Positions 1 to 59,392 of a DNA stretch of 64,000 bases are shown here, one piece after another. Position 1 is the first letter of the stretch. Each line of letters opens with the position of its first letter. The notes below the pieces were generated by a model. That model ran no database searches. It was not told the DNA's origin and saw only the letters and a program-made list of their open reading frames with translations. Origin of the DNA: Ceratodon purpureus (Eukaryota > Streptophyta > Bryopsida > Pseudoditrichales > Ditrichaceae); the NCBI GenBank assembly GCA_014871385.1, contig CM026431.1, positions 11,809,594 through 11,873,593 of the forward strand, given 5' to 3'. A program made the translations under genes and the position numbers.

Positions 1-3000
1 CGGCGTCTCACCCGTATGGAAAGAGTATTCTGACAGGAACCTATTGGGGATGAGCACTGCCCAACCCGCATGCGTGACATCCCAATTCCGCCGGGATAGC
101 TCCTCTGCTCCCACCACCTCCCTGTGCAGAATCCCTTGTCCCCTCCCTCCTCCAACACCACTACCGCCTGCCAATGGCGTTGTCGCTGCCCAGTCAGGTT
201 CCTCGTATATATGTTCCTCAAACTCCAAGTTCCGCGTACCCATGCTATCGCAGGTCTGCTGTGACTCCGGGGCCTGGTGACATTGTAGCACATCCCAGAT
301 CGCTGCGTCTGCATCCTCCTGCTCTTGCAACTTGAAGTCCAATGTTCTCCTCGCCCGTGTTGTCACCCCCACCATGGCATTGGGCCTGATGACGCTCGGT
401 GGTCTCCAATGCTTGGGCTTCCTTCCCCTGCCTGCCTTGCCCTTGCCCTTCTCCTCCTTCGTTAGGCGCTTGCCGGTCCTCCCTGCCCAGATTTCCCACA
501 CACCCAGAGCATCCGCCACCCCCAGCCAAGAAGGTTAGTCGTTAATTCCCCATCCTTGAGAAACAGCTACTGAACAAATTACGCTAAGTCCAGAGGACAT
601 GGAGCAGAGAAAGAATAAACAAGCGAAATGAAAGCAATACCGCCCCAACAGTCGGCGAACTTAGCAAAGCAACACACTCCCCACTCCCTATCCCATGGAG
701 CCCACACTCTAAACCTCGCAAATTTACTTTGAATGAGTGAACAGAGGATGCAGCATTCACATGTGCAACATTAATTGCCAATTAGAACTACTCAATCCAC
801 AACATGCAAGACAATAGGGGGCACATAAAGCAAAACGATGAGAAGATTGATCCACAGTACATGATCCACACTAGTAGCGCCCACTGAACTGTCTATGAAA
901 GCAGAAGGTTGCTCTGACCTTTTTGCCTTTGCACCTCCTGCGGCTCCACCCGACCTGTTAGTTTTTCCACTCCTCCCGATGCTGGATCCCCTGCCCCGAG
1001 GTTCTCCACAGTGTCCACCACGACCTTCCGCTTCCTGCCCCCTCTCGGCTTTGATGCCGCCCTTGCTTTCTGGGCCTCCCCAGCCCCCTCCTCTTCATGA
1101 AGAACTCGCTTCTTCCCCCTTGGCTGGCGAGACTTGTCCTCCTTCGCCAACCCATCTTCATTCTGTACTCCGCCCTCTGCATTTTTTTTTTCTCCTCTGA
1201 TCGCCCGTGGCTTCCCCACGCTCACCTCTTCCCCTGCGGCTGAGGCCCCCATCGCCAGGGGTGCTGCATTCTCGCCCTTCTTCTTCCTCGGCTGCCTTGG
1301 CTTCTTCTCCCTTGCTGCTCCTTCCAATGCCCCCGCCCCTCCATCTCCCGTTTCCCCCGCCCCCAGGGGTGCTGCATTCTCGCCCTTCTTCTTCCTCGGC
1401 TGCCTTGGCTTCTTCTCCCTTGCTGCTCCTTCCAATGCCCCCGCCCCTCCATCTCCCGTTTCCCCCGCCCCCGGGGGTGCTGGATTCTCCCCCTTCTTCT
1501 TCCTCGGCTGCCTTGGCTTCTTCTCCCTCGCTGCTCCTCCCAATGCCCCCGCCCCTCCATCTCCCGTTTCCCCCGGCCCCGGGGGTGCTGGATTCTCCCC
1601 CTTCTTCTTCCTCGGCTGCCTTGGCTTCTTCTCCCTCGCTGCTCCTCCCAATGCCCCCGCCCCTCCATCTCCCGTTTCCCCCGCCCCCGGGGGTGCTGGA
1701 TTCTCCCCCTTCTTCTTCCTCGTCTGCCTTGGTTTTTTCTCCGTCGCTGCTCCTCCCAATGCCCCCGCTCCTTCCATTGCCAGCGCTCCTCCCAATGCCC
1801 CCGCTCCTTCCATCGCCAGCTGCTTCCTCGGCCGCCCCCGTCTTTTGGCAGTTGTCACCCCCTCCACTTCGGCACTCACCACCCCCTGCCTGATCTCCAC
1901 CCCCTGATAAACCACACAGCCCCAGAGTCCCCCACCCCCCACATCCAATCCCCATGAGCATCCACTTCGAACTTCAATATCAGCCACACTAAAGATACCA
2001 TGTGAGGGGAGATTCATCAACAACCCGAAAACATCAACAGCCCGAAAACACCAACACAGCACCTATGCTGACAATACGTAGAATAGTGCACAATCCTCTC
2101 TCGACATGTTCTGAAAATTCTGTGCATGTGCACTTGGTTCGAAGGATGGATCTCAGATAAGCTTTGCAGATTTCAGAAGCTCATACAGTGAAATCTCCAA
2201 GAAAAGGCATGTATTGGAGGCATATGCACTCTAACCATCCCAACCAAATTCAACTTTGAAACAACCTGCAAACTACAGTCCATCAAACACCCTCTAAACT
2301 GAACGACGACTGCAAATCCGTAGTCAAGCCCCAACATATGCAACAAACCATACAGAGTGCAAAAATGGTTGGGTACACATTCACAATCAATCCAAGAATT
2401 TCATCGAACAGCAATGTAGTGCTCATTAAAAGGAGCGCACTTTCAGAAGACACCGAAACCCTAATCCAACTTGGAGGCAGGTGAATCAACCCGGCCATGA
2501 GATAACCGAAACCCTACTTACCTGTTCCAGGAATAGAGTGACGCCCACCATGTCCTCGGTTACTCTGGCCATGGTGCAAGCTGGTGGAGCCGATGCTCCC
2601 ACGACCATGGACTCCGGTGATTGCACCAGTCTGGCCCTCGCCGCCTGCTTGATCCCCTGCTTGGCGATGGTCTCCATGGTCTCTGTAGAAGTGTGTCTTC
2701 AAAAGCGTGGACACGAAATCCGGGAATTTGTGTCTCTCCTTCCAACCAAGGAGTCTAGCAGCGTGCCGGTACCAGTAATACCGAAGTTGCTCGTCTTCTG
2801 TGAATTGCCCCCTGCGACTCCAGCTCCGTGGACGCGGCTCCACCAGCAACTCCTCTCGGCGCAACAGGGCAACAACCTTCGCCGCCGTTGTGACCGACCG
2901 CCCCTGCTCTCTCACCCAAAGTCGAAGCGCCTCTACGCCGTCTTCTCTCCCGGGAACCTCACCCTCAATCCGCGTGTCCTCTACATTCCCCATGAAGGAA

Positions 3001-20264: not shown

Positions 20265-21410
20265 GAGTTGAAGGGCATTAAAGACTCTAATTTAGAGTCC
20301 TTGACGAAATATTGCATGTCTCAAAACTAATTTGAAGGGCACATGAGACTTCAATTTTACGCCCTTGAGGTATTTTGGGAAGTCTTAAAACCCATTTGAA
20401 GGGCACTAAAGACTTCAATTTTGCAACCTTAAGGTATTTTAGGAGGCTCCGAAATCCATATGAAAGACACTCAAGACTTCAATTAAGAGTCCCAAAGGTA
20501 TTTTGGATGTCCCAAAATTCACTTGAAGGGCAGTGCAAACTTCAATTATGTGTCCTTAAGGTATTTTTGAAAGTCCCAAAATCCATTAAAAGGGCACTAA
20601 AGACTTCAATTTTGCGTCATTGAGGTAATTTTAAAAGTCTCAAAAGCTCATTAAAAGGGTAGTGAAAACTTCAATTTTGCGTCCTTGAGGTAATTCTGAA
20701 AGTCTCAAAACCCATTTGAAGGACATTGAAGACTTCAATTTTACCATCTTAAGGTATTTTAGGAAGTCCTAAAACCCACTTCAAAGGCACTGAAGACTTT
20801 AATTTAGAGTCCTTGAGGTACTTTAGGATGTCCCAAAACTCACTTGAAAGGCGTTTAAGACTTCAATTAAGAGTCTTGAAGGTATTTTAGAAGTCCAAAA
20901 GCTCATTAGAAGGGCACTAAAGACTTAATGAAAAGTCTTTGAGGTGTTTTAGGAAGTCCCAAAACTCACTTGAAAAGTTCTAAAGACTTCAATTTGGTAT
21001 CCTTCAAGTATTTTTGGAAGTTTCAAAACTCATTTGAAAGGCAGTGAAGACTTAAAATTACAATCCTTGAGGAAATATTACAAGTCTCAAAAACCATTTG
21101 AAGGACATTGAAGACTTTAATTTTGCGACCTTAAGGTATTTTAGGAAGTCCCAAAACCCACTTCAAAGGAACTGAAGACTTTAATTTAGAGTCTCTGAAT
21201 TATTTTAGGATGTCCTAAAACTCACTTGAAAGGCATTTAAGACTTCAATTAAAAGTCGTGAAGGTATTTTAGAAGTCCAAAAGCTCAATAGAAAGGCAGT
21301 GAAAACTTCAATATTGCGTCCTTGAGGTAATTTTGGAAGTTTCAAAACCCATTTGAGGGGCACTCAAGACCTCAAGCTAGAGTCTTTGAGGTATTTTTGG
21401 AAGTCCCAAT
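20265..21410. repeat. Degenerate tandem array of a ~64-bp unit (first block, ~18 units)
   Basis: The unit contains GAAGTCCCAAAACCCA, TTTGAAGGGCACT, AAGACTTCAATTTTG and CCTTGAGGTATTTT in fixed order. The phrase TATTTT starts at 20,371, 20,435, 20,499 and 20,562, so the period is 63-64 bp. Copies differ by point changes and small indels, pointing to an old array. Short open frames through it are by-products of the repeat. Confidence 0.85.
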
Positions 21411-22227: not shown

Positions 22228-22470
22228 TCTGAGGTATTTTGGAAGTTCCAAAACCCATTTGAATGGCACTGAAAACTTGAAGTTAGAGTCTTTAAGGTAT
22301 TTTTGGAAGTCTCAAAACCCATTTAAAAGGCACTAAAGACTTCAATTTAGAGTCCTTGTGGTATTTTTGGAAGTCCCAAATTCCATTTGAAGGGCACTGA
22401 AGACTTGAATGTAGAGTCCTTTAGTTATTTTTGGAAGTCCCAAAGTCCATTTGAAGGGCATTGAAGTTTT
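22228..22470. repeat. 64-bp tandem array, second block (~4 units)
   Basis: The same unit as at 20,265-21,410 resumes here in the same orientation, with GAGGTATTTTGGAAGTTCC and CCCATTTGAATGGCACTG. The two blocks were probably one array before about 0.8 kb was inserted between them. Confidence 0.8.
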
Positions 22471-45648: not shown

Positions 45649-46376
45649 GTGTCTACCTTTGCATTTCTTAATTGTTGTTACAATAATTCTAGTAAATCAA
45701 AGAAGAAATATACTAAGAAAAATTGAGTGTCAACTTCTTGTTGGCTGCAAAAATAATGCACATGATAACTAATATATGTAGAATATAAGTAAACTATAAC
45801 TATTTGAAGCAAAAGATGAGTATTACTCATGAAATCTCTCAAATCCAAAAAAATGCTTACAGAGCATTCATGCTTGTAAACACATGAGCACGTCAATGAA
45901 CAACATTCAGTCAAGGAAAAAACTATGCTGTGAAAAGATTAAGAATTGGATTTGCAAAAAAGTTATATGTAGCATTATTTTAAAATAAAAATCATTCTAC
46001 AATATGAATTTTGATATTATTAAGAATCATCAAAATATATTAGTACAAAAGAATTTTATTTTTAATAAAATAAAAACATAGTTCTAAAAAGGGGCCGCTC
46101 CCATTGCATTGATTCTATATATTTTAATATTTAATTTATTTAAATTTCTAATTTCAAAAAAATACCATTTTTTTAGTACATTTTGGAAAACGGATGTGTA
46201 TCTAAAAGCCAAAGTAACTTGGTAGAACAAATAGATTTGATAAACTACTTGTAAATTTTTGATGAAGTTGTGGTAATAATCTTTATTATATATTGGTTCC
46301 CTTTACTCCCTTATATAATAACACTTTCACCCTTATATAATAATTTCTTTATACTAATAATATAATGATATGTTGA

Positions 46377-46735
46377 TTAGTTATTTCTAAAATAAGATTC
46401 AAATACATGTAAAATTTGACATTGTTGCCAAAAAGGTACTTTTCTCTTCAATAATGCTTTCTTTAAACGAGTTCTAAAATATTCAATACAACTCTCAGAT
46501 GCAAAAGTTGACAAATTCTTGCCGCAAGTAGGACATGTCATCTTTAATGTTGACAACAATTGTTTTTTGATCCATTCTTGCAAACATGCTGAACAAAATA
46601 AATGAATACATGGCGTGAGTGTATGATCTTCATCGACAACATCTAAGCAAATGTGACAAACATTTTCTCCTTCTTGACTTTGTTCTTGAGGTCCTTCTTT
46701 GAAATCCTTTGTTGAAAATAATGCAATGAAATTTT
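46377..46735 (-). CDS. RING finger (C3HC4) terminal exon
   Basis: The frame contains CHICLDVV, then CIHLFCSACLQEWI and CPTCGKN. This gives C-x2-C, C-x-H-x2-C-x2-C and C-x2-C spacings of a C3HC4 RING domain, the zinc-binding core of E3 ubiquitin ligases. Downstream is a basic helix (YFRTRLKKALLKRKV) and a stop at 46,377. The frame opens upstream to 46,751 without an ATG, and an acceptor-like TTTTCAACAAAG precedes the codon run at about 46,705, so this is probably the last exon of a longer minus-strand gene whose start I could not find. AT-rich codon use matches the neighbouring array-flanked genes rather than the host genes. Confidence 0.55.
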
Positions 46736-47103
46736 TGGTGAATAAATCCAAATACTATAGTATTTGAAAAAAATGATGATGTCAAACTTGTTCTTATGAA
46801 TACAATCATGTACACATTCAAAATCCAAATTTAAGTTCTAGCAAAAAAATGATGTAAATCATATAAATGATAAGAATTAATGTCATATATATAGTAATGT
46901 CATGCAATATTTAAAAGTAAAAACTAAGCATATAGAATGGTAAAGTAAAACTATATTCCACAAGAACACTAATAAGTCACACAAATACATTTTGCTTTAA
47001 CTCTAAATAGAACATAAAGTATCCAAAAAACATAAACAAAAGTAAAAGCATAACACTTCGGTGCATTAAATAATACTTGAGTACATGTATTACATGTTTT
47101 CAA

Positions 47104-48275
47104 ATCAGATCTTGTAGATAGTAAATATGACCTCATAGTAGAAATGACCTCGTAGTGAAAATGCCCTGGACGAGGAAATGGCCTCTTGTGAAATTGCCCT
47201 CGCAGAGTAAATGCCTTGTAGTGCATATGACCTTGTAATAAAATTGAACTAGTAGTGAAAATGCCCTTGTAGGAGATATGACCTCGTAGTAAACACTACC
47301 TCGTCGTGAGAATGCCCTCGTACGCAAAATGCCCTCATACTAAATATCACCTTGTATGAAAAATGACCTTGAAGTGAAAACTCCCATGTAGTGACAATGC
47401 CCTTGTTGTAAATATGACCTTGTTAGGAAAATGTCTTCGTAGTGAAAATGCCCTCGTACGGAAAATGCCCTTTTAATAAATATGACCTCCTAATTAAAAT
47501 GACCTTCTAATAGTGAAAATGCCCTTGTAGGCAAAATGCCCTTGTAGGCAAAATGCCCTTGTATTAAATATGACCTCGTATTAAAAATGACCATGTATGG
47601 AAAATCTCCTCGTAGTGAAAATGCCCTTGTAATTAATATGCCCTCGTTAGGGAAAGGACCTCGTAGTAAAAATGCCCTCGTAGTTAAAATGCCCTTGTCG
47701 TAAGTATGATCTCGTAATAGAATTCGACTTGTAGTGAAAATGCCCTTGTACTAAATATGACCTCGTATTAAAAACGACCTAGTATGGAAAATCCCCTCGT
47801 AGTGAAAATGCCCTTGTAGTTAATATGCCCTAAATTAGGGAAAGGACCTCGTAGTAAAAATGCCCTCGTAATGAAAATGCCCTTGTAGTAAGTATGATCT
47901 CGTAATAAAATTCAACTTGTAGTGAAAATGCCCTTGTAGTAAATATGACCTCGTAGTAGATTTGACCTCGTAGTGAAAATGCCCTGGACGAGGAAATGGC
48001 CTCTTGTGAAAATGCCCTCGTTGTGAAAATGCCCTCGTAGAGTAAATGCCCTTGTAGTGCATATGATCTTGTAATAAAATTGAACTAGTAGTGAAAATGC
48101 CCTTGTAGTAAATATGACCTCGTAGTAGAAATGACCTCGTAGTGAAAATGCCCTGGACGAGGAAATGCCCTCGTTGTGAAAATGCCCTCGCATAGTAAAT
48201 GCCCTTGTAGTGCATATGACCTTGTAATAAAATTGAACTAGTAGTGAAAATGCCCTTGTAGTAAATATGACCTCG
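47104..48275. repeat. Left array of a 17-bp unit (~69 copies), GCCCTCGTAG orientation
   Basis: The unit consensus is AAAATGmCCTyGTAGTr: for example aaaatgcccttgtagta, aatatgacctcgtagta and gaaatgacctcgtagtg follow each other directly. Larger modules recur, such as CTGGACGAGGAAATGGCCTC near 47,163 and 47,988. As 17 is not a multiple of 3, open frames show a 17-residue (51-bp) period. The reverse complement forms the array at 53,796-54,716 and the same orientation recurs at 58,512-59,392. Confidence 0.9.
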
Positions 48276-48387
48276 GAATATTTACTCATGTTTACTTATG
48301 AGATTTTAATTTCGTAATCAAAAGTACCAAGGTATGTCTTTGTTAGTATTGTTGTACTTTAAGAATGCATGTGAAATTTAATGATTA

Positions 48388-49912
48388 ATGAAGACCTTTG
48401 GATATGTTCTTATATTCTTGTGTATTATTGTTGTAGCTTCAAGACCTGTTCTGTATGAGGTGCCACTAGCTGGGTTTGAGATTATAGCCTCCTTTAAGGC
48501 TTTAGGAATCTCAATTCCTTCTAGTGTGCGAAAGGTTCTAAGGGTTGAAAAACTTTGTGTTTTGAGTGAAGAGAAAAAATTTACATATGATAAGGACAAA
48601 GCTGTGGAGGATTTGAGTGACATTCATCACTCCGTGGTGTTAATGGATGACAACATCATCATTGGGATGTTTGTCTTCGATGAAATCTCTTCCTCTGATT
48701 GTGTAGAGATTGAAGAAATTAGTAGAGGCATCTATGGTGCTGGTGGAGTAGTAAAGCGTAGCAATGCTAAGGGGTCTGACAAGATGGTGATGTGTGGTTG
48801 GAGACGTGATATGGGGAAGAGAGAAGATGACATCAATGCATTTGGAAGGTAAGTTTTTTCCTTATATTCTTTTTCACAATTCTTTCAATGCTTTCAAATT
48901 CAAGAGTATAATACATAATATATTGATTTTGAGTTTGCTTTTCTATATTTTTGGTAGGTACTCCCATGGTGTAAGAGGAGTCTCGAAGAAAAAAAAAGTA
49001 ACAAGGCAAGAACTTGAAGACATGGGGGATTATCTAACTGGTGATTTATTGGGACCACATTTGGAGCGACTTTTCCCTTCATTTATGGAGGAATTAAATG
49101 TGTTATTGACCCAAAGTGCATCTTCCATGTTCTTGGGGACAATTGGAGGCCGAAGCCTGACAACATTGGCTATAACATCAAACTACTTTGCCCTGCCACA
49201 TCTTGATCCTGAAGATCTAGGCTTTGCTTTTCTTACTTGGTTTGTGAAAGGTATAGTGTATGCCATATCTTACTCATTTATATTGATTATTCCTGAATGT
49301 TGATATTGCATTAATTATTTTCTAATGTGTTGATATTGATTCATGAAGAATGTATTTTGCTTGCAGTTCGGCATGGCCCTAGGCATGTTAAGAATGGAGG
49401 AGAATTTATCTTGCCTGAGTATGGACTGTTTGTTAGACCAAAAGATGGTTTGATATTTGCATTCTCTACGAGCATTGTTCTTCATTGCACAAGGGTTGCT
49501 ACTGGCTATGATGTTATTGGTATGTCATGCTCTGCAAAGAGAAATGTGATGAACAAAGCTCATTCAAGAACCCAAGAGATAAAACAATATCATAATGATC
49601 GTAAGTAATCTTCCTATTGTTCTATTTAAAAAAATAAATTTATTGTCTCTTATTTATTCAAGTTTATTGTTTTATGAGTTTTATAAACTTATTTGGGTGT
49701 TGAAATTTCATTTTCACACTAGTTTGTATTGTTCTTTGTTTTGAAATTGGACAATAGAGGAGAGATTGCGGCAGCAACAACTTGAAGATGACGTAGTTGG
49801 GATGAGATCATTGTCTTCTACTTCAGTGACTCTAAAGACCTATGTGAGGAGGAGATCATTGTCTTCTACTTTAGTGACTCTAAAGACCTATGTGAGGAGG
49901 TCTAAGGGGTGA
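48388..49912 (+). CDS. Putative 2-oxoglutarate/Fe(II) dioxygenase, TET/JBP-like, 380 aa
   Basis: Four exons: 48388-48848, 48958-49250, 49367-49600, 49758-49912; phases agree and total 1143 nt. Residues about 225-310 carry the double-stranded beta-helix signature: HLD (His235, Asp237) after TSNYFALP, then GGEFILPEYG, then RPKDGLIFAF and distal His291 in LHCT; Arg310 could bind 2-oxoglutarate. This HxD...GGxF.P..G...H order fits the JBP/TET group known from fungi, algae and KDZ transposons, which oxidises methylated DNA bases, but other 2OG families share it. Residues 1-153 are not recognised. The first 20 residues look like a signal peptide, yet TTGTTGTAG just inside could be an intron acceptor, so the N-terminus is unsure. 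The last exon has a 16-residue duplication. It is framed by the 17-bp arrays with the kinesin-like gene downstream. Confidence 0.62.
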
Positions 49913-50627
49913 TGCATAGAATCCATATCTTTTTAATGCATCTCACTTGTGTTGTTACCATTAGGATTCTTTCCCTTTGGAGTAAAGGGAAAAAGACATT
50001 GAATTTGTTCTCTATTTGAATATGATAACATGCATTTTTGCTTCAATATCTAAAATTTGAAATGGATCTTATAGATTTTGTCAATGGATAATAATGAAGG
50101 AGTATACATTATTTAGTACTCTCTTATTTGACAATTCTCATATTGTTTTGTACTATGACAATATATGTTAATATACACTTGAAGAGTATCTTTTAATACA
50201 TGAAGAATAATGTCTATATCTTAAGGTAAACAAATGAATCTATCATGTTCTTTATTTGATGTTCTTTCTAATAACAAGTTTACAAACTTTGGGGAGTGTT
50301 GTTTCAATATTTGCATACATGGCCCAACCTTTGGACCATTTAGATTACAAGGAATTAGTCATGGCCTTTAGATTCACTATGCATTTCATTTTGTAATGAC
50401 ATATAGAAGAGAGCCAAAAACATGTGGCCACATCTTGGTTTAAAATACTTACATGAAAAAATTATCATGAAAAAATTATCCAACTTAGAGGTATAAGGAC
50501 ACAATGAAGCAAATAAGAGGCCTACTTCTATGTCGACTTTGTCATTAGTACACATGATCCATTAGTTCTTGGAACATGAGATTTGGTATACAACTTCGTA
50601 ATTTCAATATAACTTCGTATATAAATT
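49913..50627. other. AT-rich spacer between the two array-bounded genes
   Basis: No coding sequence is supported. The exon with the kinesin P-loop (GQTxSGKT) would be expected here upstream of 50,628; I searched all frames by eye and did not see it. Confidence 0.5.
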
Positions 50628-53577
50628 CTTGGAGACATTGAGCATCGTGGTGATAAATTAGGTGACAATTGGGGCATGGCTCCTCGTCTGTTGGAAAATC
50701 TCTTCTCGAGAATGGTATGCAACCTTTGGATTGTTTCTTTGTGAGGACCTAGGTACTAAGTTATTGGTCAGTATGGTATAAGAAGTGTTGAGGTTGAATG
50801 AGGATGTGGTGCCAGACATTACATGTCGTTTGGGAGAATTTAGGACTAAGACGGTGAGGACCGGACTGTGTAGGCTTTGGAACAATCGAAGCATGAGAAG
50901 CTAAGCTTTCTTATGAAGTTCTCCTTCCTTGAGATCTACAATGAAACAATTAATGATTTGTTGATGGCCACTTCTAAAAACTTGCAGGTAAGTAGTTTCT
51001 TGTAACTTGGCAATTGAAGGTCATTGGTACATAGGCAAAGCCATGTCTTGTGGCATTTTTGAAGTAGGGGTGGCCTTGTATTCGGCCTTGTGTGTTTAAG
51101 TTTTGACTGAGAGGGGCTGTTGGTGGCAACTTATAGATTGGAGTGGATAAGAAAAAAGTAGTGCAAGTGGAGGGCTTGACTGAGGTCCGTGTGATGGGCA
51201 TCCAAGATATGATGCAGCAATTTCGTAAGGTAATAGTCATTGCCTCTTCTTAAATGCTATTGTGTGAAGTTGATGTGGTTGGTTAAAACATCGAGACTTC
51301 TTTTTTGGCCAAAACGGAACAATGCTTACATGGATGCACCATTGGTTGTCAGGGATTGTCCGAAAGAAAGGTGTCAGCCAACTACATGAATGGAGAGTCA
51401 AGCCGCTGACATAGTGTATTTACATGTATCATTGAAAGTACACGGGTTTGCAACTCAATAAAGAGTACTAAGTTAACAAGATTTAATCTTGTTGATCTAG
51501 CGGGGTGCGAAAGGTATGTAGATTTCATCATTCGTACTATTGATCATTATTGGTGGTGTTATGCAGATTGGTCATTACTCATTTGGTGGATGTTGCAAAT
51601 GGCAAATCGTGCCATGTTCCATATCGGGATTCCAAGCTCACTTGGCTTCTTCAAGTAAGTTTACACTTGCAAGTACAGGCCATGGTCATTGCATTTCTAG
51701 GGTATGTAGAGAAATTTGCCATAATTAACATTATAGGCATATATTTGTTGATTTAATGGTGTGCGCACTGTTATATGTAGGACTCTCTTGGTGGAAACTC
51801 GAAGACTACCATGATTGCAACCGTTAGCCCGTCCAAGAGGTTAGTCACATGTAACTTGTTGATTCTTCAATGTCACTATAGCTTTAAGAATTGTTATGGC
51901 CTTGGTTGATGTCTAGTTAAGTATGACGGTACCATTGCAACATTGCATGAAATCGATTTTACATGTTTTTTGTTTTTTTTATTGTGATAGCAACATTAAG
52001 GAAACCTGCAGCACTCTCAAGTTTGCCGAACGTGCGAAATTAATCCGCAACAGGGTAGGTATTTTTCAGTTTTGATTTCCTTGTGGACTAAAGTTGTCCA
52101 CCAAGGCTTTGAGCTGTTACTTACATGTGCAATGTGAGTAGGCCATGGTCAATCAAGACTCGTCCAAGGCCCTGGTCAATCAAAACTTGTGCACGGATGT
52201 GATGGCATGTCGTGATACGATCCGACGATTGGAGGTGCCAAGTTGCTATTCTTTTTGCCTTTTTAGGACTTTTTTGCATATTTGTGTTGGATTCATTTTT
52301 ATTGTGCATGTATATTTAAATTTTGTTTTATTGTGAAATAGGAGGAATTGAATCGACTCCATGATCAACAAAAGGAATTGAATGAACTGCGTGAGCAGTC
52401 ACTAAAGACACAAAGTCTACGCTTTGAGCTTGAGGTGAGTAGAATGAACCACATGTCTAGCTTACATAGTGTGTACTATGTTGGTTCATTTTGCAACCAC
52501 TTTGTTCATGCTATTACTTTTTTGGTATGTAGGCTACGAAAGAGAAATTTGAAGCAGAACAAGCTTTCAATAATGAGTTGCACCATTTACGCCATCGACT
52601 CCGTGAGCAAGGAGAAGAATTGATGCAACTCCGTGGACAATTAGAAGAGAAGGAGAACCTACGCTTTGAGCTTGAGGTGAGTAGAATGCACCACATCTTT
52701 AGCTCACATAGTGTGTACTATGTTGGTTCATTTAGAAACCACTTTATTGATGCTATCTTTTGTATGCAGGCTTTGAAAGAGAAATTTGATGCAGAACAAG
52801 CTTTCAATAATGAGTTGAACCATCTCCGTGCGCAACTCCGTGAGCAAGGGGAGGAATTGATAGGACTCCGTGGACAATTAGAAGAGAGGGAGAATCTACG
52901 CTCTCAGCTTGAGGTGAGTGGAATCTACCACATGTTTAGCTTACATAGTGTGTACTATGTTGGTTCATTATGCACCACTTGGTTAATTGTATTATTATTT
53001 TTGGATGCAGGCCATGGAGGAGGAATTAAAAGTTCAACGGGGTCTTAATTTATCTTTTAGGAAACTTGATAGTGAAGGAGTGATTGAGGTAAACTTTGAG
53101 GAGAATCCACCTAGTATCGAGAAGGTACGGGGAATAGCATCACCAATCGTTTCAGGTACTTTTTCACAATTTCATGATGTGGAGAGGCAACAAAATTTTG
53201 CGGACAGTATCAAGAAGGTACGGAGAATATCATTGCCACTCCTTGAATTACAAGTAGAGGAGGTGGAATCGTTAATGCCCAATGGGGCTGACGGAATTTG
53301 CTACATTTCCAACCATGGTCACACAAATGTGGAAGTAACATCCAAGTTGAAAAGACCACATGTCTCAATTGACGAGGCTCTTCATCCAAGCCGACGAGTC
53401 TATAGAAAGTGGAGTGAAAATGAAATCAGTGCCCTTAACGAGGAATATGATAAGCATGGCCCTTGTTGGTCAGAGATTCTAAAGTCAAGGCCAGAAATTT
53501 TCAAAAATAGGAATAATATTGCTTTGAAGGACAAGTTTCGAAATACTTATGGTGTACGGAAACCTTCTAAGCCATGA
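50628..53577 (+). pseudogene. Kinesin-12-derived gene lacking P-loop, fused to coiled coil and SANT/Myb-like domain
   Basis: Twelve segments: 50628-50714, 50874-50987, 51137-51229, 51353-51513, 51567-51654, 51781-51839, 51991-52054, 52142-52234, 52342-52434, 52533-52676, 52770-52913, 53011-53577. Motor motifs appear in order: WGMAPRLLENLF, FSFLEIYNE, VEGLTEV, NYMNGESSR-stop-HSVFTC, LVDLAGCER, DVANGK, VPYRDSKLTWLLQDSLGGNS, LKFAERAKLIRN. This order and wording match plant phragmoplast kinesin-12 (PAKRP1). The P-loop exon is missing, TGA at 51,407-51,409 replaces the Ser codon of SSRSHS, and about 25 residues after LAGCER (the NINKSL region) are absent, though frames still join. Coiled-coil exons follow, then a 189-codon last exon ending in a SANT/Myb-like segment with KWSENEISALNEEYDKHGP and LKDKFRN. 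It cannot be an active motor; a downstream product is possible. Confidence 0.7.
52342..52913 (+). repeat. Duplicated coiled-coil exons with their introns
   Basis: Exons 52533-52676 and 52770-52913 are both 144 nt and nearly identical in layout (KEKF.AEQAFNNEL, then LREQGEEL, then LRGQLEE.ENLR). The exon at 52342-52434 shares the RFELE ending. The introns also match: GTGAGTRGAATGNACCACAT and the phrase catagtgtgtactatgttgg recur after each exon. These are tandem duplications of exon plus intron. Confidence 0.85.
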
Positions 53578-53795
53578 AAACATGGGCTTTAAAAACTTTT
53601 TGAAAAGGTGCGGCCTCTCATCAAATCCATTTTTAATTGCCACATCATTGTGTAATGTGGTTTCATTTAAATTTGTGGTTGTATATATTTTGCTATGAGT
53701 TCTACGTAGAGTTTTCATGCTTTTGCGTTGCTTGGTTCGGTGGGTTGGCAGGAAGACGAGGATATGGTGCCACGAGAGAGGCGGCTATTGAAAAG

Positions 53796-54716
53796 TACGA
53801 GGGCATTTTTACTACGAGGTCCTTTCCCTAATTTAGGGCATATTAACTACAAGGGCATTTTCACTACGAGGGGATTTTCCATACATGGTCATTTTTAATA
53901 CGAGGTTTTTTTTAATACGAGGTCATATTTAGTACAAGGGCATTTTGCCTACAAGGGCATTTTCACTATTACAAGGTCATTTTAATTAAGAGGTCATATT
54001 TATTAAAAGGGCATTTTCCGTACGAGGGCATTTTCACTACGAAGACATTTTCCTAACAAGGTCATATTTACAACAAGGGCATTGTCACTACATGGGAGTT
54101 TTCACTTCAAGGTCATTTTTCATACAAGGTGATATTTAGTACGAGGGCATTTTGCGTACGAGGGCATTCTCACGACGAGGTAGTGTTTACTACGAGGTCA
54201 TATTTCCTACAAGGGCATTTTCACTACTAGTTCAATTTTATTACAAGGTCATATGCACTACAAAGGCATTTACTCTGCGAGGGCATTTTCACAACGAGGG
54301 CATTTTCACAAGAGGCCATTTCCTCGTCCAGGGCATTTTCACTACGAGGTCAAATCTACTACGAGGTCAAATCTACTACGAGGTCATATTTACTACAAGG
54401 GCATTTTCACTACAAGTTGAATTTTATTACGAGATCATACTTACTACAAGGGCATTTTCACTACAAGTTGAATTTTATTACGAGATCATACTTACTACAA
54501 GGGCATTTTCTTTACGAGGGCATTTTTACTACGAGGTCGTTTTCCATACGAGGGCATATTAACTACAACGGCATTTTCACTACGAGGGGATTTTCCATAC
54601 TAGGTCGTTTTTAATACGAGGTTTTTTTTAACACGAGGTCATATTTAGTACAAGTCGAATTCTATTACGAGATCATACTTACGACAAGGACATTTTAACT
54701 ACGAGGGCATTGTAAC
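53796..54716. repeat. Right array of the 17-bp unit, inverted (CTACGAGGGC orientation)
   Basis: About 54 units reading ACTACGAGGGCATTTTC and variants, the reverse complement of the left array. Higher-order blocks match, including GAGGCCATTTCCTCGTCCAG near 54,311. A 54-bp piece with ACAAGTTGAATTTTATTAC is doubled at about 54,411 and 54,461. Confidence 0.9.
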
Positions 54717-57700
54717 GAAGAATCATCATGTAAATTCTTATACAAAAACGTGTATGGAATTTTTAGAATGATCATTGGCTAACTTTTAAGTGATCTTAAA
54801 AAAAATGCATTATCTAATTTTGTCATTATTGTGGTTTTAGTTTATGGTTTACTGATTTAATATTTAGTCTATCTTATTTTTAATCTAATATGAAAAATCT
54901 TCATCTTTGTAGATAATATTTTAACCATATCTTTCAATCATTATCTCTTATCCTTCTTCTTTTTGATCTGATTTTTTGATAGATTTCAATATATAATTAA
55001 AATTATTATTTTAAATTGTGTATAATATCTATTAATATTTAAAGTAAAATTATGATTTAATAATTTAAATAAGTAAAATATAATTTTAAAATTAAAATAA
55101 TAATTTAAATGAGTATAATAAGTATTATTTTAATTAACATACTATGTATAATTATTATCTTTACCATAATTATTAGTATTTAAAGTATGATCAAGAATAT
55201 CTTATTGAATATTAAATATCAATTCACTTGTGTACAAATAAATATTTTACTCTAAAAGTTGTTTTGATTATCACTATAGGTATTAATAATTAAACAATCA
55301 TGAAATAAAAAAATTTCTTTACACAATCAATTGTACATTGAAGTCCTTCTATTTTATCTTTTAGACTGTTGTACTGTAAAATTTTCACCAATGGTGAAAT
55401 TTGGACTTTTCTCTTGAACAATCATATTTTGTATATGGTCCGTTATTCTAATATGGTGCAAGTTAATAATTCATTTGGTATATTTACATTCACTACAAAC
55501 ATTTACATGCAACTCATTAAACCTGATGAAGCCTTCTACCAGTAAAAAAGAGGCCTAAAGGAGAGGTGGACAAATTAGTTTTAAAAATCATGTCCAAATA
55601 CAATGATGGAGAAATTTGTGGGAACTCGGCACTTAGCAGGATAAATGAGTTCAAGCAGTCAGAGACAATCAAAAGTAGACAATCTGAAGTGAAATTGTTG
55701 AAATACTTGGCTTTTTTGACACTATCACATTTCTGGCTAATTTGGTCACTCTTCTTGTGGTTGCAAAATTGCAAGTTTTTTATATAGAGGATTCTAAGTA
55801 ACTTAATTATTCTTAATCTAAGTTGATGATTATAGGTATTAAATGTTTACTATGACATGTCCTTCACCTCTGTGTTTCTCCCACTCTAAACCTCTCTCTT
55901 TTCACCCACTTTAAAAATAAGGCAAGGCAATTCCAAATAGTAGCCCCTCGTAACTACAAGTTTTGGAATGGTTGCAAGATTTGATGAATTGTTATCACTG
56001 AAGAATGAATTCAGTTTCTAGCATGGAAACAAGGCGTTAGAGATGTTTTGAAATTTGGGTTTATATACAAGTAAATAGTATAACAAAGGTTTGAACATAA
56101 GAAACTTATGCCCCCTTCCCACCAAAAGGTTGGTTGGAGGTTATGATGAAGGTAGGATAGTGGTTTGTATATGATGATTCACACCACAAAAAGGTGGTAC
56201 CTGCCAATATCATATATGACATGGCATCCTACTTGGCGAATGAGTTATCTTGAGAGGTAAAGATGAGGTGGAGTATTGATGAAGTTATGCTCCATAACTT
56301 TGTTGCATGTCAAGAATAGTAACCAAAAGTAGGTAGTGGTAGAGATATGGAGTAGCTTAACTACTCCACTAGTAAGTGACTGTAGAATCTCCATGCATGA
56401 TGTGAACATTCTCATCTATACCACTATTGATACTTGACTGGTGCTTGACTGGTGCGCGGGCTTGATACCTGGGGCGCGGGTGTGTTGGCCTCGGAGCGGT
56501 TTTGAATGTGGTGCATGACATTACAATTTGCGGGATACGCTCAAGTTCTCGGCATCATGATAAACATGAGAAGTAAGTTTGTATCCTGTGATTGGATTTT
56601 TTGATATTGGTGGATGCTCTGTGGATAGTTGAGGGGTGATTTTGATTTTTCCAAGGAAGAGGCGAAACGAGGTTGCAGCAATGCCGACTTGTACGAGCTT
56701 GTCCAGCATTCGGGAAACATTCTACCGTGATTGTAAGTTGTTTGTTTGAAAATGAAAACATGCGGAATGAAATCTATCACCGCGCTGTCCTGCAAATGAA
56801 AATCGACGGAATAAAGTCTACCATAGTGCTATCTAGCCAACCTCTTTCATTCTGAAGCAAATGAAAATTTCGCCCTCCACTCAACCCTAAGAGCGACGAC
56901 ATGAAAAACTATGAGGCGTCGTGAAAACCCTTACGTCTTCTCAACAGCACTGGTTACATTTGGAATCTTGGAATCTACTAATAGCCAGTGCAATGATACG
57001 TCCCTGCAAATACTGATGCAAATACTGATTCCAACTCAGGTCCTTGTTCTTGATCAAGGAGTCGTAAGCAACATCTGAATAGAATCCAAATGAATAGAAT
57101 CAACGCATCTCAAAACCAAAATGATAAAAGATAAAAATAAAAGCTGGACCTGCAACCAATTAACAAAGCCTTCATCAAAAGCTATTCCATCCAAGGCAAG
57201 GCAAGTGATGGTGTCATATAGATCAATTACCACAAAGCAAAACTCGCAACTCCAAAAACTCCTGATGACACACACACCATTTAAACTCCAAAACACACCC
57301 AAGCAGACCCCATGGATAGCATGGTGGTAGGTGAATCTCGTCACCCACATACTACTACCCAAGGAGCCACTGCAACCTCAATGGAAGACTTGGTGGTAGG
57401 TGAATCTTGTCACCCACATACCCATCCCAATCAAGGCAAAAAAAAAACAAACACACGTGATTCAACCAAAGAAATTCATCACTTGAACATAGATGTCTTC
57501 AATTAATGCGCTCAACGAAACCAATAACCAAAAAGTTCCAATAAAAAACAAGCTGGACTTGCAATCAATTAACAAAGCCTTCATCAAAAGCTATTCCATC
57601 CAAGGCAAGGCAAGTGACGGTGTCATACAGATCAATTACCACAATGCAAAACTCCCAACTCCAAAACTCCTGATGACACACACACCATTAAACTCCACCT

Positions 57701-57854
57701 GACGGAAAAGGGTTTGGCAAGTGCTTCAAACCCTACGAAACCAATATTTGAACAAACACTAACAATGCATCAATACCGTTCCACAGTCATAGGTCTAAAA
57801 ATCCTAACAAAACATGGACCACCGTTGCATCGCCATAGGTCCTCAAACCCTATT
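54717..57854. other. AT-rich DNA with two short unexplained frames and a duplication
   Basis: 54,720-55,500 is extremely AT-rich and empty. A plus frame at 55,566-55,787 and one near 56,640-56,725 (with KRGCSNADLYELVQHSGN) look slightly protein-like but lack starts or splice support. The piece at 57,139-57,290 recurs at 57,550-57,700, as noted separately. I see no complete gene. Confidence 0.4.
57139..57700. repeat. ~150-bp direct duplication, about 410 bp apart
   Basis: The phrase aacaaagccttcatcaaaag, ending with gatgacacacacaccatt, is at about 57,161-57,280 and 57,570-57,690 with few differences. A second internal phrase, GGTGGTAGGTGAATCT, is doubled at 57,324 and 57,391. The minus strand of the first copy stays open (FVVIDLYDTITCLALDG), suggesting a duplicated gene fragment; family not recognised. 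Confidence 0.6.
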
Positions 57855-58496
57855 ACTAAAGACACAAAGTCTACGCTTTGAGCTTGAGGTGAGTAGAATG
57901 AACCACATGTCTAGCTTACATAGTGTGTACTATGTTGGTTCATTTTGCAACCACTTTGTTCATGCTATTACTTTTTTGGTATGTAGGCTACGAAAGAGAA
58001 ATTTGAAGCAGAACAAGCTTTCAATAATGAGTTGCACCATTTACGCCATCGACTCCGTGAGCAAGGAGAAGAATTGATGCAACTCCGTGGACAATTAGAA
58101 GAGAAGGAGAACCTACGCTTTGAGCTTGAGGTGAGTAGAATGCACCACATCTTTAGCTCACATAGTGTGTACTATGTTGGTTCATTTAGAAACCACTTTA
58201 TTGATGCTATCTTTTGTATGCAGGCTTTGAAAGAGAAATTTGATGCAGAACAAGCTTTCAATAATGAGTTGAACCATCTCCGTGCGCAACTCCGTGAGCA
58301 AGGGGAGGAATTGATAGGACTCCGTGGACAATTAGAAGAGAGGGAGAATCTACGCTCTCAGCTTGAGGTGAGTGGAATCTACCACATGTTTAGCTTACAT
58401 AGTGTGTACTATGTTGGTTCATTATGCACCACTTGGTTAATTGTATTATTATTTTTGGATGCAGGCCATGGAGGAGGAATTAAAAGTTCAACGGGT
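57855..58496 (+). pseudogene. Truncated second copy of the kinesin-like coiled-coil exons
   Basis: This stretch repeats 52,411-53,040 base for base as far as I can read, including three introns. It starts abruptly inside the exon at ACTAAAGACACAAAG and ends inside the last exon after GTTCAACGG, before the SANT/Myb part. It runs into the third 17-bp array, and there is no start codon or terminal exon. The near identity suggests a recent duplication. Confidence 0.85.
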
Positions 58497-58511
58497 ATAT
58501 TTCAAAAGTAA

Positions 58512-59392
58512 AAATGACCTTGTAATAGTGAAAATGCCCTTGTAGGCAAAATGCCCTTGTACTAAATATGACCTCGTATTAAAAAAAACCTCGTATTAAA
58601 AAGACCATGTATGGAAAATCCCCTCGTAGTGAAAATGCCCTTCTTATTAATATGCCCTCGTTAGGGAAAGGACCTCGTAGTAAAAATGCCCTCGTAGTTA
58701 AAATGCCCTTGTCGTAAGTATGATCTCGTAATAGAATTCGACTTGTACTAAATATGACCTCGTGTTAAAAAAAACCTCGTATTAAAAACGACCTAGTATG
58801 GAAAATCCCCTCGTAGTGAAAATGCCGTTGTAGTTAATATGCCCTCGTATGGAAAACGACCTCGTAGTAAAAATGCCCTCGTAAAGAAAATGCCCTTGTA
58901 GTAAGTATGATCTCGTAATAAAATTCGACTTGTAGTGAAAATGCCCTTGTACTAAATATGACCTCGTATTAAAAACGACCTAGTATGGAAAATCCCCTCG
59001 TAGTGAAAATGCCCTTGTAGTTAATATGCCCTAAATTAGGGAAAGGACCTCGTAGTAAAAATGCCCTCGTAATGAAAATGCCCTTGTAGTAAGTATGATC
59101 TCGTAATAAAATTCAACTTGTAGTGAAAATGCCCTTGTAGTAAATATGACCTCGTAGTAGATTTGACCTCGTAGTGAAAATGCCCTGGACGAGGAAATGG
59201 CCTCTTGTGAAAATGCCCTCGTTGTGAAAATGCCCTCATAGAGTAAATGCCCTTGTAGTGCATATGATCTTGTAATAAAATTGAACTAGTAGTGAAAATG
59301 CCCTTGTAGGAAATATGACCTCGTAGTAAACACTACCTCGTCGTGAGAATGCCCTCGTACGCAAAATGCCCTCGTACTAAATATCACCTTGT
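58512..59392. repeat. Third array of the 17-bp unit (~52 copies), same orientation as the left array
   Basis: The same units and higher-order blocks as at 47,104-48,275, including CTGGACGAGGAAATGGCCTC near 59,185 and the terminal block AAACACTACCTCGTCGTGAG near 59,326. The orientation relative to the coiled-coil exons is opposite to that in the main element, so this copy is rearranged. Confidence 0.9.

What the first reader, a model, noticed from the sequence alone, without database searches (positions are those of the whole stretch)
47104..54716. Inverted 17-bp-repeat arrays enclosing a dioxygenase-like gene and a kinesin-derived gene
Two ~1-kb arrays of the same 17-bp unit face each other around two AT-rich, intron-bearing genes unlike their host neighbours. 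This looks like a large mobile element, or remnant, whose ends are built from minisatellite arrays. The cargo combines a putative DNA-base oxidase with a captured cytoskeletal gene fused to a Myb-like domain. I know of no described plant element with this combination, though I cannot search.
Basis: partly seen in the sequence, partly recalled or inferred. Interest (0 to 1): 0.88.

Follow-up and report, generated by a model that had tools for sequence, protein, structure and literature searches.

The report
Minisatellite mosaic trapping moss gene fragments
In what looks like a moss genome, arrays of one 17-base repeat enclose broken pieces of two genes, one of them related to enzymes that chemically modify DNA bases; the arrangement looks like a DNA patchwork rather than one clean jumping gene, but the enzyme family itself is very numerous in this genome and partly carried by repeated, apparently mobile DNA.

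Summary
In detail: two ~1-kb arrays of a 17-bp unit lie inverted around two intron-bearing genes (429 nt, 97% complementary). A 641-bp exact copy of part of the kinesin gene and a third array follow 3-4 kb further on. Gene 1 is a Tet-like 2OG-Fe(II) dioxygenase (PF20515; closest solved relative CMD1) with its HxD...H triad, but without the N-terminal zinc-finger part of its relatives. Gene 2 is a damaged kinesin-12-type motor joined to a Myb-like exon. In the 362-Mb genome (probably Ceratodon purpureus) the 17-bp unit was found at only two loci; at the other (C3) the arrays run almost all in one direction. Kinesin-Myb copies on C1, C2 and C4 have no arrays, outer L does not mirror outer R, and no target duplication was found. 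I therefore favour a mosaic made by template switching or ectopic recombination through the arrays over an element with array ends. The larger surprise lies outside the window: about 88 loci with Tet-like matches, one subfamily inside a repeat of about 20 kb or more whose right end is shared by 7 of 9 copies, beside a ubiquitin ORF.

The parts
47119..48275 (+). array L, 17-bp unit (TRF consensus TAGTGAAAATGCCCTCG), about 68 copies
   Evidence: TRF; k-mer scan
48437..49912 (+). gene 1: Tet-like 2OG-Fe(II) dioxygenase; exons 48437-48848, 48958-49250, 49367-49600, 49758-49912; the frame is also open upstream to an ATG at 48388; lacks the N-terminal zinc-finger-like part found in its relatives
   Evidence: spliced frame; PF20515 4.3e-8; CMD1 8.7e-7; relatives (zinc-finger profiles of P0001 weak)
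50624..53577 (+). gene 2: kinesin-12-type gene joined to a Myb-like last exon (53011-53577); cut just after the P-loop, one internal exon missing against the C4 copy, in-frame TGA at 51407
   Evidence: (KIF15 best)
53794..54718 (-). array R, same unit, inverted
54719..57854 (.). unassigned spacer between array R and the second kinesin piece; contains a direct duplication (57100-57290 / 57512-57697, 89%)
   Evidence: its genome search did not complete
57855..58495 (+). second copy of part of gene 2, identical to 52401-53041 over 641 bp
58506..59391 (+). array F, third 17-bp array, same orientation as array L

Best explanation
The region 47119-59391 is a mosaic: blocks of one low-copy 17-bp minisatellite, in both orientations, interleaved with broken copies of genes. 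Shown: the unit was found at only two loci; the arrays share blocks of unit variants in different phases; pieces of the kinesin-Myb gene, cut at different points, lie beside arrays in three places and without arrays in three others; one 641-bp piece was copied (or converted) too recently to differ at all. Inferred: the arrays acted as homology for template switching during break-induced replication, or for ectopic recombination, which joined array blocks and gene pieces and inverted some of them. The kinesin-Myb gene is best preserved on C4, of the copies seen; the dioxygenase belongs to a large Tet-like family of this genome and lost its zinc-finger-like half. Neither cargo gene is likely to do its ancestral job here: the motor lacks the P-loop, and the oxidase lacks the presumed DNA-reading part although its catalytic part is open and has its iron ligands.
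For: Two loci only. C3 patch: arrays all + except a 31-bp minus piece, enclosing a 174-bp tandem repeat, a kinesin-Myb piece (97.7%) and other fragments; one 280-bp fragment there is 98-99% identical to sequence on C4 (about 5 kb downstream of the kinesin-Myb copy), C7 and C9. Array phases: outer L matches inner R; R and F share blocks at 100%. Kinesin-Myb pieces at C1, C2 and C4 without arrays. The window copy, its second piece, C1, C2 and C3 all have different 5' cuts. Exact 641-bp copy. No flanking repeat of 7 bp or more. Divergence of gene 2 from C3 is alike in exons and introns, 23 of 1153 and 20 of 831 sites with approximate exon borders, so little constraint.
Against: The outer arrays are inverted with 97% complementarity over 429 nt, as in foldback elements, whose copies are known to be rearranged (PMC4079207, abstract and passages). 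No template-switch junction was traced to a donor base by base. The spacer 54719-57854 was never searched against the genome. The dioxygenase frame is intact, which fits a recent or still selected gene. The limits of the C4 copy were not determined.
Confidence: 0.6

Rival explanations
1. A rearranged, non-autonomous foldback-type (Mutator-like) transposon: the arrays are its long inverted ends, the genes are captured cargo, and C3 and the third array are scrambled copies.
For: Inverted arms, 97% over 429 nt; foldback TIRs are internally repetitive and hotspots for ectopic recombination, and rearranged copies are common (PMC3169594 and PMC4079207, passages); introns are retained, as in DNA-level capture.
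Against: Ends not mirrored in phase, no flanking repeat of 7 bp or more, arrays almost all direct on C3, no second copy with the same ends in the genome, kinesin-Myb disperses without arrays. No transposase-like frame was noticed among the ORFs of 100 aa or more (read by eye; no profile search of the whole window was run).
Confidence: 0.25
2. Insertion of extrachromosomal circular or rolling-circle DNA: the different phases of the same array blocks come from cutting circles at different points.
For: R and the C3 array next to the kinesin gene look like phase-shifted versions of L; L repeats its first 168 bp at its end (95%).
Against: The internal periods differ between arrays, so slippage in the arrays explains the phases as well.
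Confidence: 0.08
3. Assembly error joins pieces of separate loci.
For: A 641-bp exact duplicate 5.4 kb away and repetitive arrays are typical places of misassembly.
Against: Each junction sits in different flanking sequence, C3 independently shows array-kinesin junctions, and the window has no N. No reads were available.
Confidence: 0.05

Closest known systems
Foldback transposons (FARE of Arabidopsis, Tetris of Drosophila virilis, Tm1 of Meloidogyne)
   Same: Inverted arms made of tandem repeats, variable middle part, rearranged relatives.
   Different: No target duplication found, ends not in mirrored phase, arrays almost all direct at the second locus, no second element with the same ends.
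TET+ DNA transposons of fungi (Kyakuja, Dileera, Zisupton and others, PMC12730594)
   Same: A TET/JBP-type dioxygenase associated with mobile DNA, many copies per genome.
   Different: Plant host (inferred); no transposase identified; in the window the gene is a truncated family member inside a minisatellite mosaic. The C12-type repeat is the better parallel, but no TIR was seen and its large ORFs have no significant Pfam match.
CMD1 of Chlamydomonas (5mC to 5-glyceryl-methylcytosine)
   Same: Only solved relative found by sequence; HxD and second His aligned.
   Different: Only residues 185-279 align; cofactor use cannot be told from sequence.
Pack-MULE / CACTA / Helitron gene capture
   Same: Gene pieces with introns dispersed at DNA level.
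   Different: No element termini could be assigned to the captured pieces.

Membership tests
Foldback transposon | Long terminal inverted repeats made of tandem repeats | tested here: inconclusive
   Inverted arrays at C11, but outer L matches inner R and C3 arrays are almost all direct
Foldback transposon | Target site duplication of 8-10 bp (Tetris: PMC4079207, passages) | tested here: not met
   No shared word of 7 bp or more between 70-bp flanks for L..R, L..F or the second kinesin piece with array F; random flank pairs share 8 bp in 8%
Foldback transposon | Several copies with the same ends | tested here: not met
   17-bp unit at two loci only, organised differently
TET/JBP-type dioxygenase | Family profile and Fe(II) ligands HxD...H | tested here: met
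   PF20515 33.8 bits against cut-off 27; H218, D220, H274 of the 363-aa frame; aligned to CMD1
TET/JBP-type dioxygenase | Oxidises methylpyrimidine in DNA | not testable with these tools
   needs enzyme assay
Kinesin-12 | Motor domain of kinesin type, closest to KIF15 | tested here: met
   PF00225 2.9e-55; KIF15 best among PDB chains
Kinesin-12 | ATP-binding P-loop and uninterrupted frame | tested here: not met
   P-loop exon present on C4, cut in the window; in-frame TGA at 51407 and one exon missing
Myb/SANT domain | PF00249 at or above cut-off | tested here: not met
   18.4 bits against 24.4, E 0.0024; likeness to telomere-binding Myb domains is recalled only
TET+ DNA transposon | Complete element with TIRs, TSD and transposase around the TET gene | tested here: not met
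   Window: see foldback rows. C12-type repeat: shared right end, but no TIR or LTR seen, left end not reached so no TSD test, large ORFs without a significant Pfam hit

The most novel reading that the evidence does not exclude
A land plant (moss) genome has undergone a Tet-like dioxygenase expansion comparable to that of basidiomycete fungi, partly carried by a repeat of 20 kb or more that bears a zinc-finger Tet/JBP gene and a ubiquitin ORF; such cargo would help the element escape cytosine-methylation silencing. The window mosaic is a graveyard made from this cargo pool, which also holds a JmjC gene beside the kinesin-Myb gene on C4.
Probability: 0.55. Interest if true: 0.8.

Novelty: new variant of a known kind. 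Interest (0 to 1): 0.55.

Why it matters
The patchwork shows a minisatellite serving as the joint between unrelated gene pieces, caught recently enough that one copy has no differences. More important, TET/JBP enzymes are not usually expected in land plants, which remove 5mC with DNA glycosylases (recalled). Dozens of Tet-like loci, one subfamily inside a dispersed repeat with a sharp end, make it testable whether plant mobile DNA uses base oxidation against silencing, as proposed for fungal elements (PMC12730594, abstract). I found no paper on TET/JBP genes in mosses in the library searches; of those listings (12, 10, 1 and 0 rows) I opened only PMC12730594, PMC11065753 and PMC12344493, the last of which speaks of TET-like enzymes in Naegleria and of giant-virus insertions in Physcomitrium (passages). 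Recalled, not read: an earlier fungal study mentions lateral transfer of TET/JBP genes to some Viridiplantae.

Tried and rejected
Clean target-site duplication on C3: a 26-bp direct repeat flanks the C3 patch (C3:6898840 and 6906784), but it is part of a dispersed repeat of about 30 bp with more than a dozen further sites, so I dropped it as a duplication. An 11-bp word shared at 54739 and 59399 is no more than chance would give. TIRs at the ends of the C12-type repeat: none found.

Selection on the Myb exon: window against C3 shows 6 synonymous and 8 non-synonymous codon changes where random change gives 3.69 non-synonymous per synonymous; at most weak constraint. A first codon count used a wrong frame and is discarded; its exon/intron counts used approximate exon borders.

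Zinc-finger part upstream of gene 1: tblastn of P0001 and P0002 against the window found only the known exon at a significant level. The upstream N-terminus from the ATG at 48388 is probably an accident.

Structure prediction was not run: the spliced proteins are not contiguous window translations. A Pfam check of the RING-like ORF failed and was not repeated.

Never answered although repeated: genome DNA search with 50500-53780 and with 54720-57850, so the source of the spacer is unknown.

Full report
What is there. Two arrays of one 17-bp unit lie at 47119-48275 (+) and about 53794-54718 (-), with arms 47216-47644 and 53835-54263 of 429 nt that are 97% complementary. A third array, 58506-59391 (+), follows a 641-bp exact copy of 52401-53041 at 57855-58495. 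The genome around the window could be searched: 362.5 Mb, 151 contigs, the window being C11:11809594-11873593. C6 is 110.5 Mb, 30% of the total. Ceratodon purpureus R40 is listed as 358 Mb, with sex chromosomes of about 30% of the genome (PMC13120521, passages), so I take it to be that moss; this is inference.

The genes. Gene 1 joins from four exons into one open frame of 363 aa. It matches PF20515, Tet-like 2OG-Fe(II) oxygenase, at 4.3e-8 and, among solved structures, only CMD1 (8.7e-7). The ligands H218, D220 and H274 are present. Its closest relatives (P0001, P0002, and genome loci at about 50-54% identity in the first exon) carry zinc-finger-like sequence upstream, in the same exon as the start of our domain (the zinc-finger profiles of P0001 are below cut-off); the window copy has none. 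Gene 2 is a kinesin (PF00225 2.9e-55; KIF15 best) followed by coiled-coil exons (by eye) and a last exon with a weak Myb match. It begins just after the P-loop, lacks one exon and has a TGA at 51407, judged against the copy at C4:10.22 Mb. The C1 and C4 copies keep the last exon open; the C3 copy has a one-base deletion there.

How far the association goes. The exact unit pattern has 31 matches in the genome, 16 in the window and 15 at C3:6.8992-6.9067 Mb; a 1001-bp DNA query gave 72 matches, all at these two loci (its six first-look candidates were all scored). On C3 the arrays are + except one 31-bp piece, and they enclose a 174-bp tandem repeat, a kinesin-Myb piece (97.7%) and other fragments, but no DNA match to the dioxygenase part in the 30 kb fetched. 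Of six pieces of gene 2 (window, window second copy, C1, C2, C3, C4), three lie beside arrays and three do not; a further, weak match (C11:15624548, 35%) was set aside. The window copy, its second piece, C1, C2 and C3 have different 5' cuts; the limits of the C4 copy were not determined. So arrays and cargo are separable.

Why not an element with array ends. In a terminal-inverted-repeat element the outer end of one arm mirrors the outer end of the other. Here positions about 100-390 from the outer end of L match positions about 460-750 from the outer end of R at 98-100%, and R and F share other blocks at 100%. No word of 7 bp or more is shared by the flanks, and no second copy with these ends was found. 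Array-mediated rearrangement explains inverted and direct arrays, different cut points, and a fresh exact copy. Foldback elements are themselves recombination hotspots and come in rearranged forms (PMC3169594 and PMC4079207, passages), so that rival keeps 0.25.

The wider lead. A six-frame search with gene 1 gave 136 matches, which I clustered to 88 loci (same contig and strand, gaps over 5 kb). Only 112 of 281 candidates were scored, so this is a lower bound for matches; it includes weak and broken copies, unplaced contigs that may repeat placed ones, and the window itself. Of 17 fetched loci, several near-identical to each other, 13 keep all three ligands, 2 (L025, L028) have lost one or more, and in 2 (L020, L021) that part gave no alignment. 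One subfamily lies in a repeat: C12 and C13 align over about 20 kb at 98.9%. Of nine copies that I chose by their 403-413-aa frames (two similar matches, C1:2895735 and C6:18.094 Mb, were left out), 7 share the right end ...ATGAATATGGCGTT followed by different DNA; C7 and C10 do not show it in the fetched 1.3 kb. The C12 copy carries a ubiquitin ORF (PF00240 1.2e-24) and a two-exon gene with zf-met (1.8e-4) and Tet_JBP (1.2e-4, below cut-off) matches, and three large ORFs without a significant Pfam match; one of these has eight relatives in the protein collection. No TIR or LTR was seen and the left end was not reached, so the kind of element is open; an insertion of viral origin is not excluded, since such insertions are reported in Physcomitrium (PMC12344493, passages). 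On C4, about 1 kb downstream of kinesin-Myb, lies a JmjC ORF (PF02373 2.7e-12). Fungal transposons are known to carry TET/JBP genes (PMC12730594, abstract, introduction and passages); I found nothing for mosses.

Verdict.

Noticed in passing
G000:C12:10838000-10864000 (L037, L035, L033) and six other copies: Repeat of about 20 kb or more with a sharp shared right end in 7 of 9 copies, carrying a ubiquitin ORF, a zinc-finger Tet/JBP gene and large ORFs of unknown kind; type of element unknown.
   Followed up: partly
whole genome G000: About 88 loci with Tet-like dioxygenase matches, 17 of them on the large sex-chromosome-like contig C6 and the rest elsewhere.
   Followed up: partly
G000:C4:10220159-10228909 (L053, L055): Most complete kinesin-Myb copy seen, followed about 1 kb downstream by a JmjC ORF; downstream pieces recur on C3, C7 and C9.
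   Followed up: partly
G000:C3:6900474-6902275: 174-bp tandem repeat, about 10 copies, set between two 17-bp arrays.
   Followed up: no
G000:C3:6898830-6898865: Dispersed repeat of about 30 bp at many genome sites, present on both sides of the C3 patch.
   Followed up: no
window 46342-47054 and L012:2126-2797: Stretch left of array L, with a RING-like minus-strand ORF (by eye), has a 77% inverted relative just right of the window.
   Followed up: no
window 20268-21409 and 22232-22466: A second, unrelated minisatellite with a 64-bp unit.
   Followed up: no
window 1258-1777: 108-bp tandem repeat, 4.8 copies at 96% match, open in long frames.
   Followed up: no
G000:C7:5569687-5573085 and 5604107-5607505 (L020, L021): Two Tet-like copies 34 kb apart, 99.97% identical over 3.4 kb.
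   Followed up: no
P0003 (protein collection): A 97% identical Myb exon from a 932-bp public assembly contig, different from both the window and the C3 copy.
   Followed up: partly
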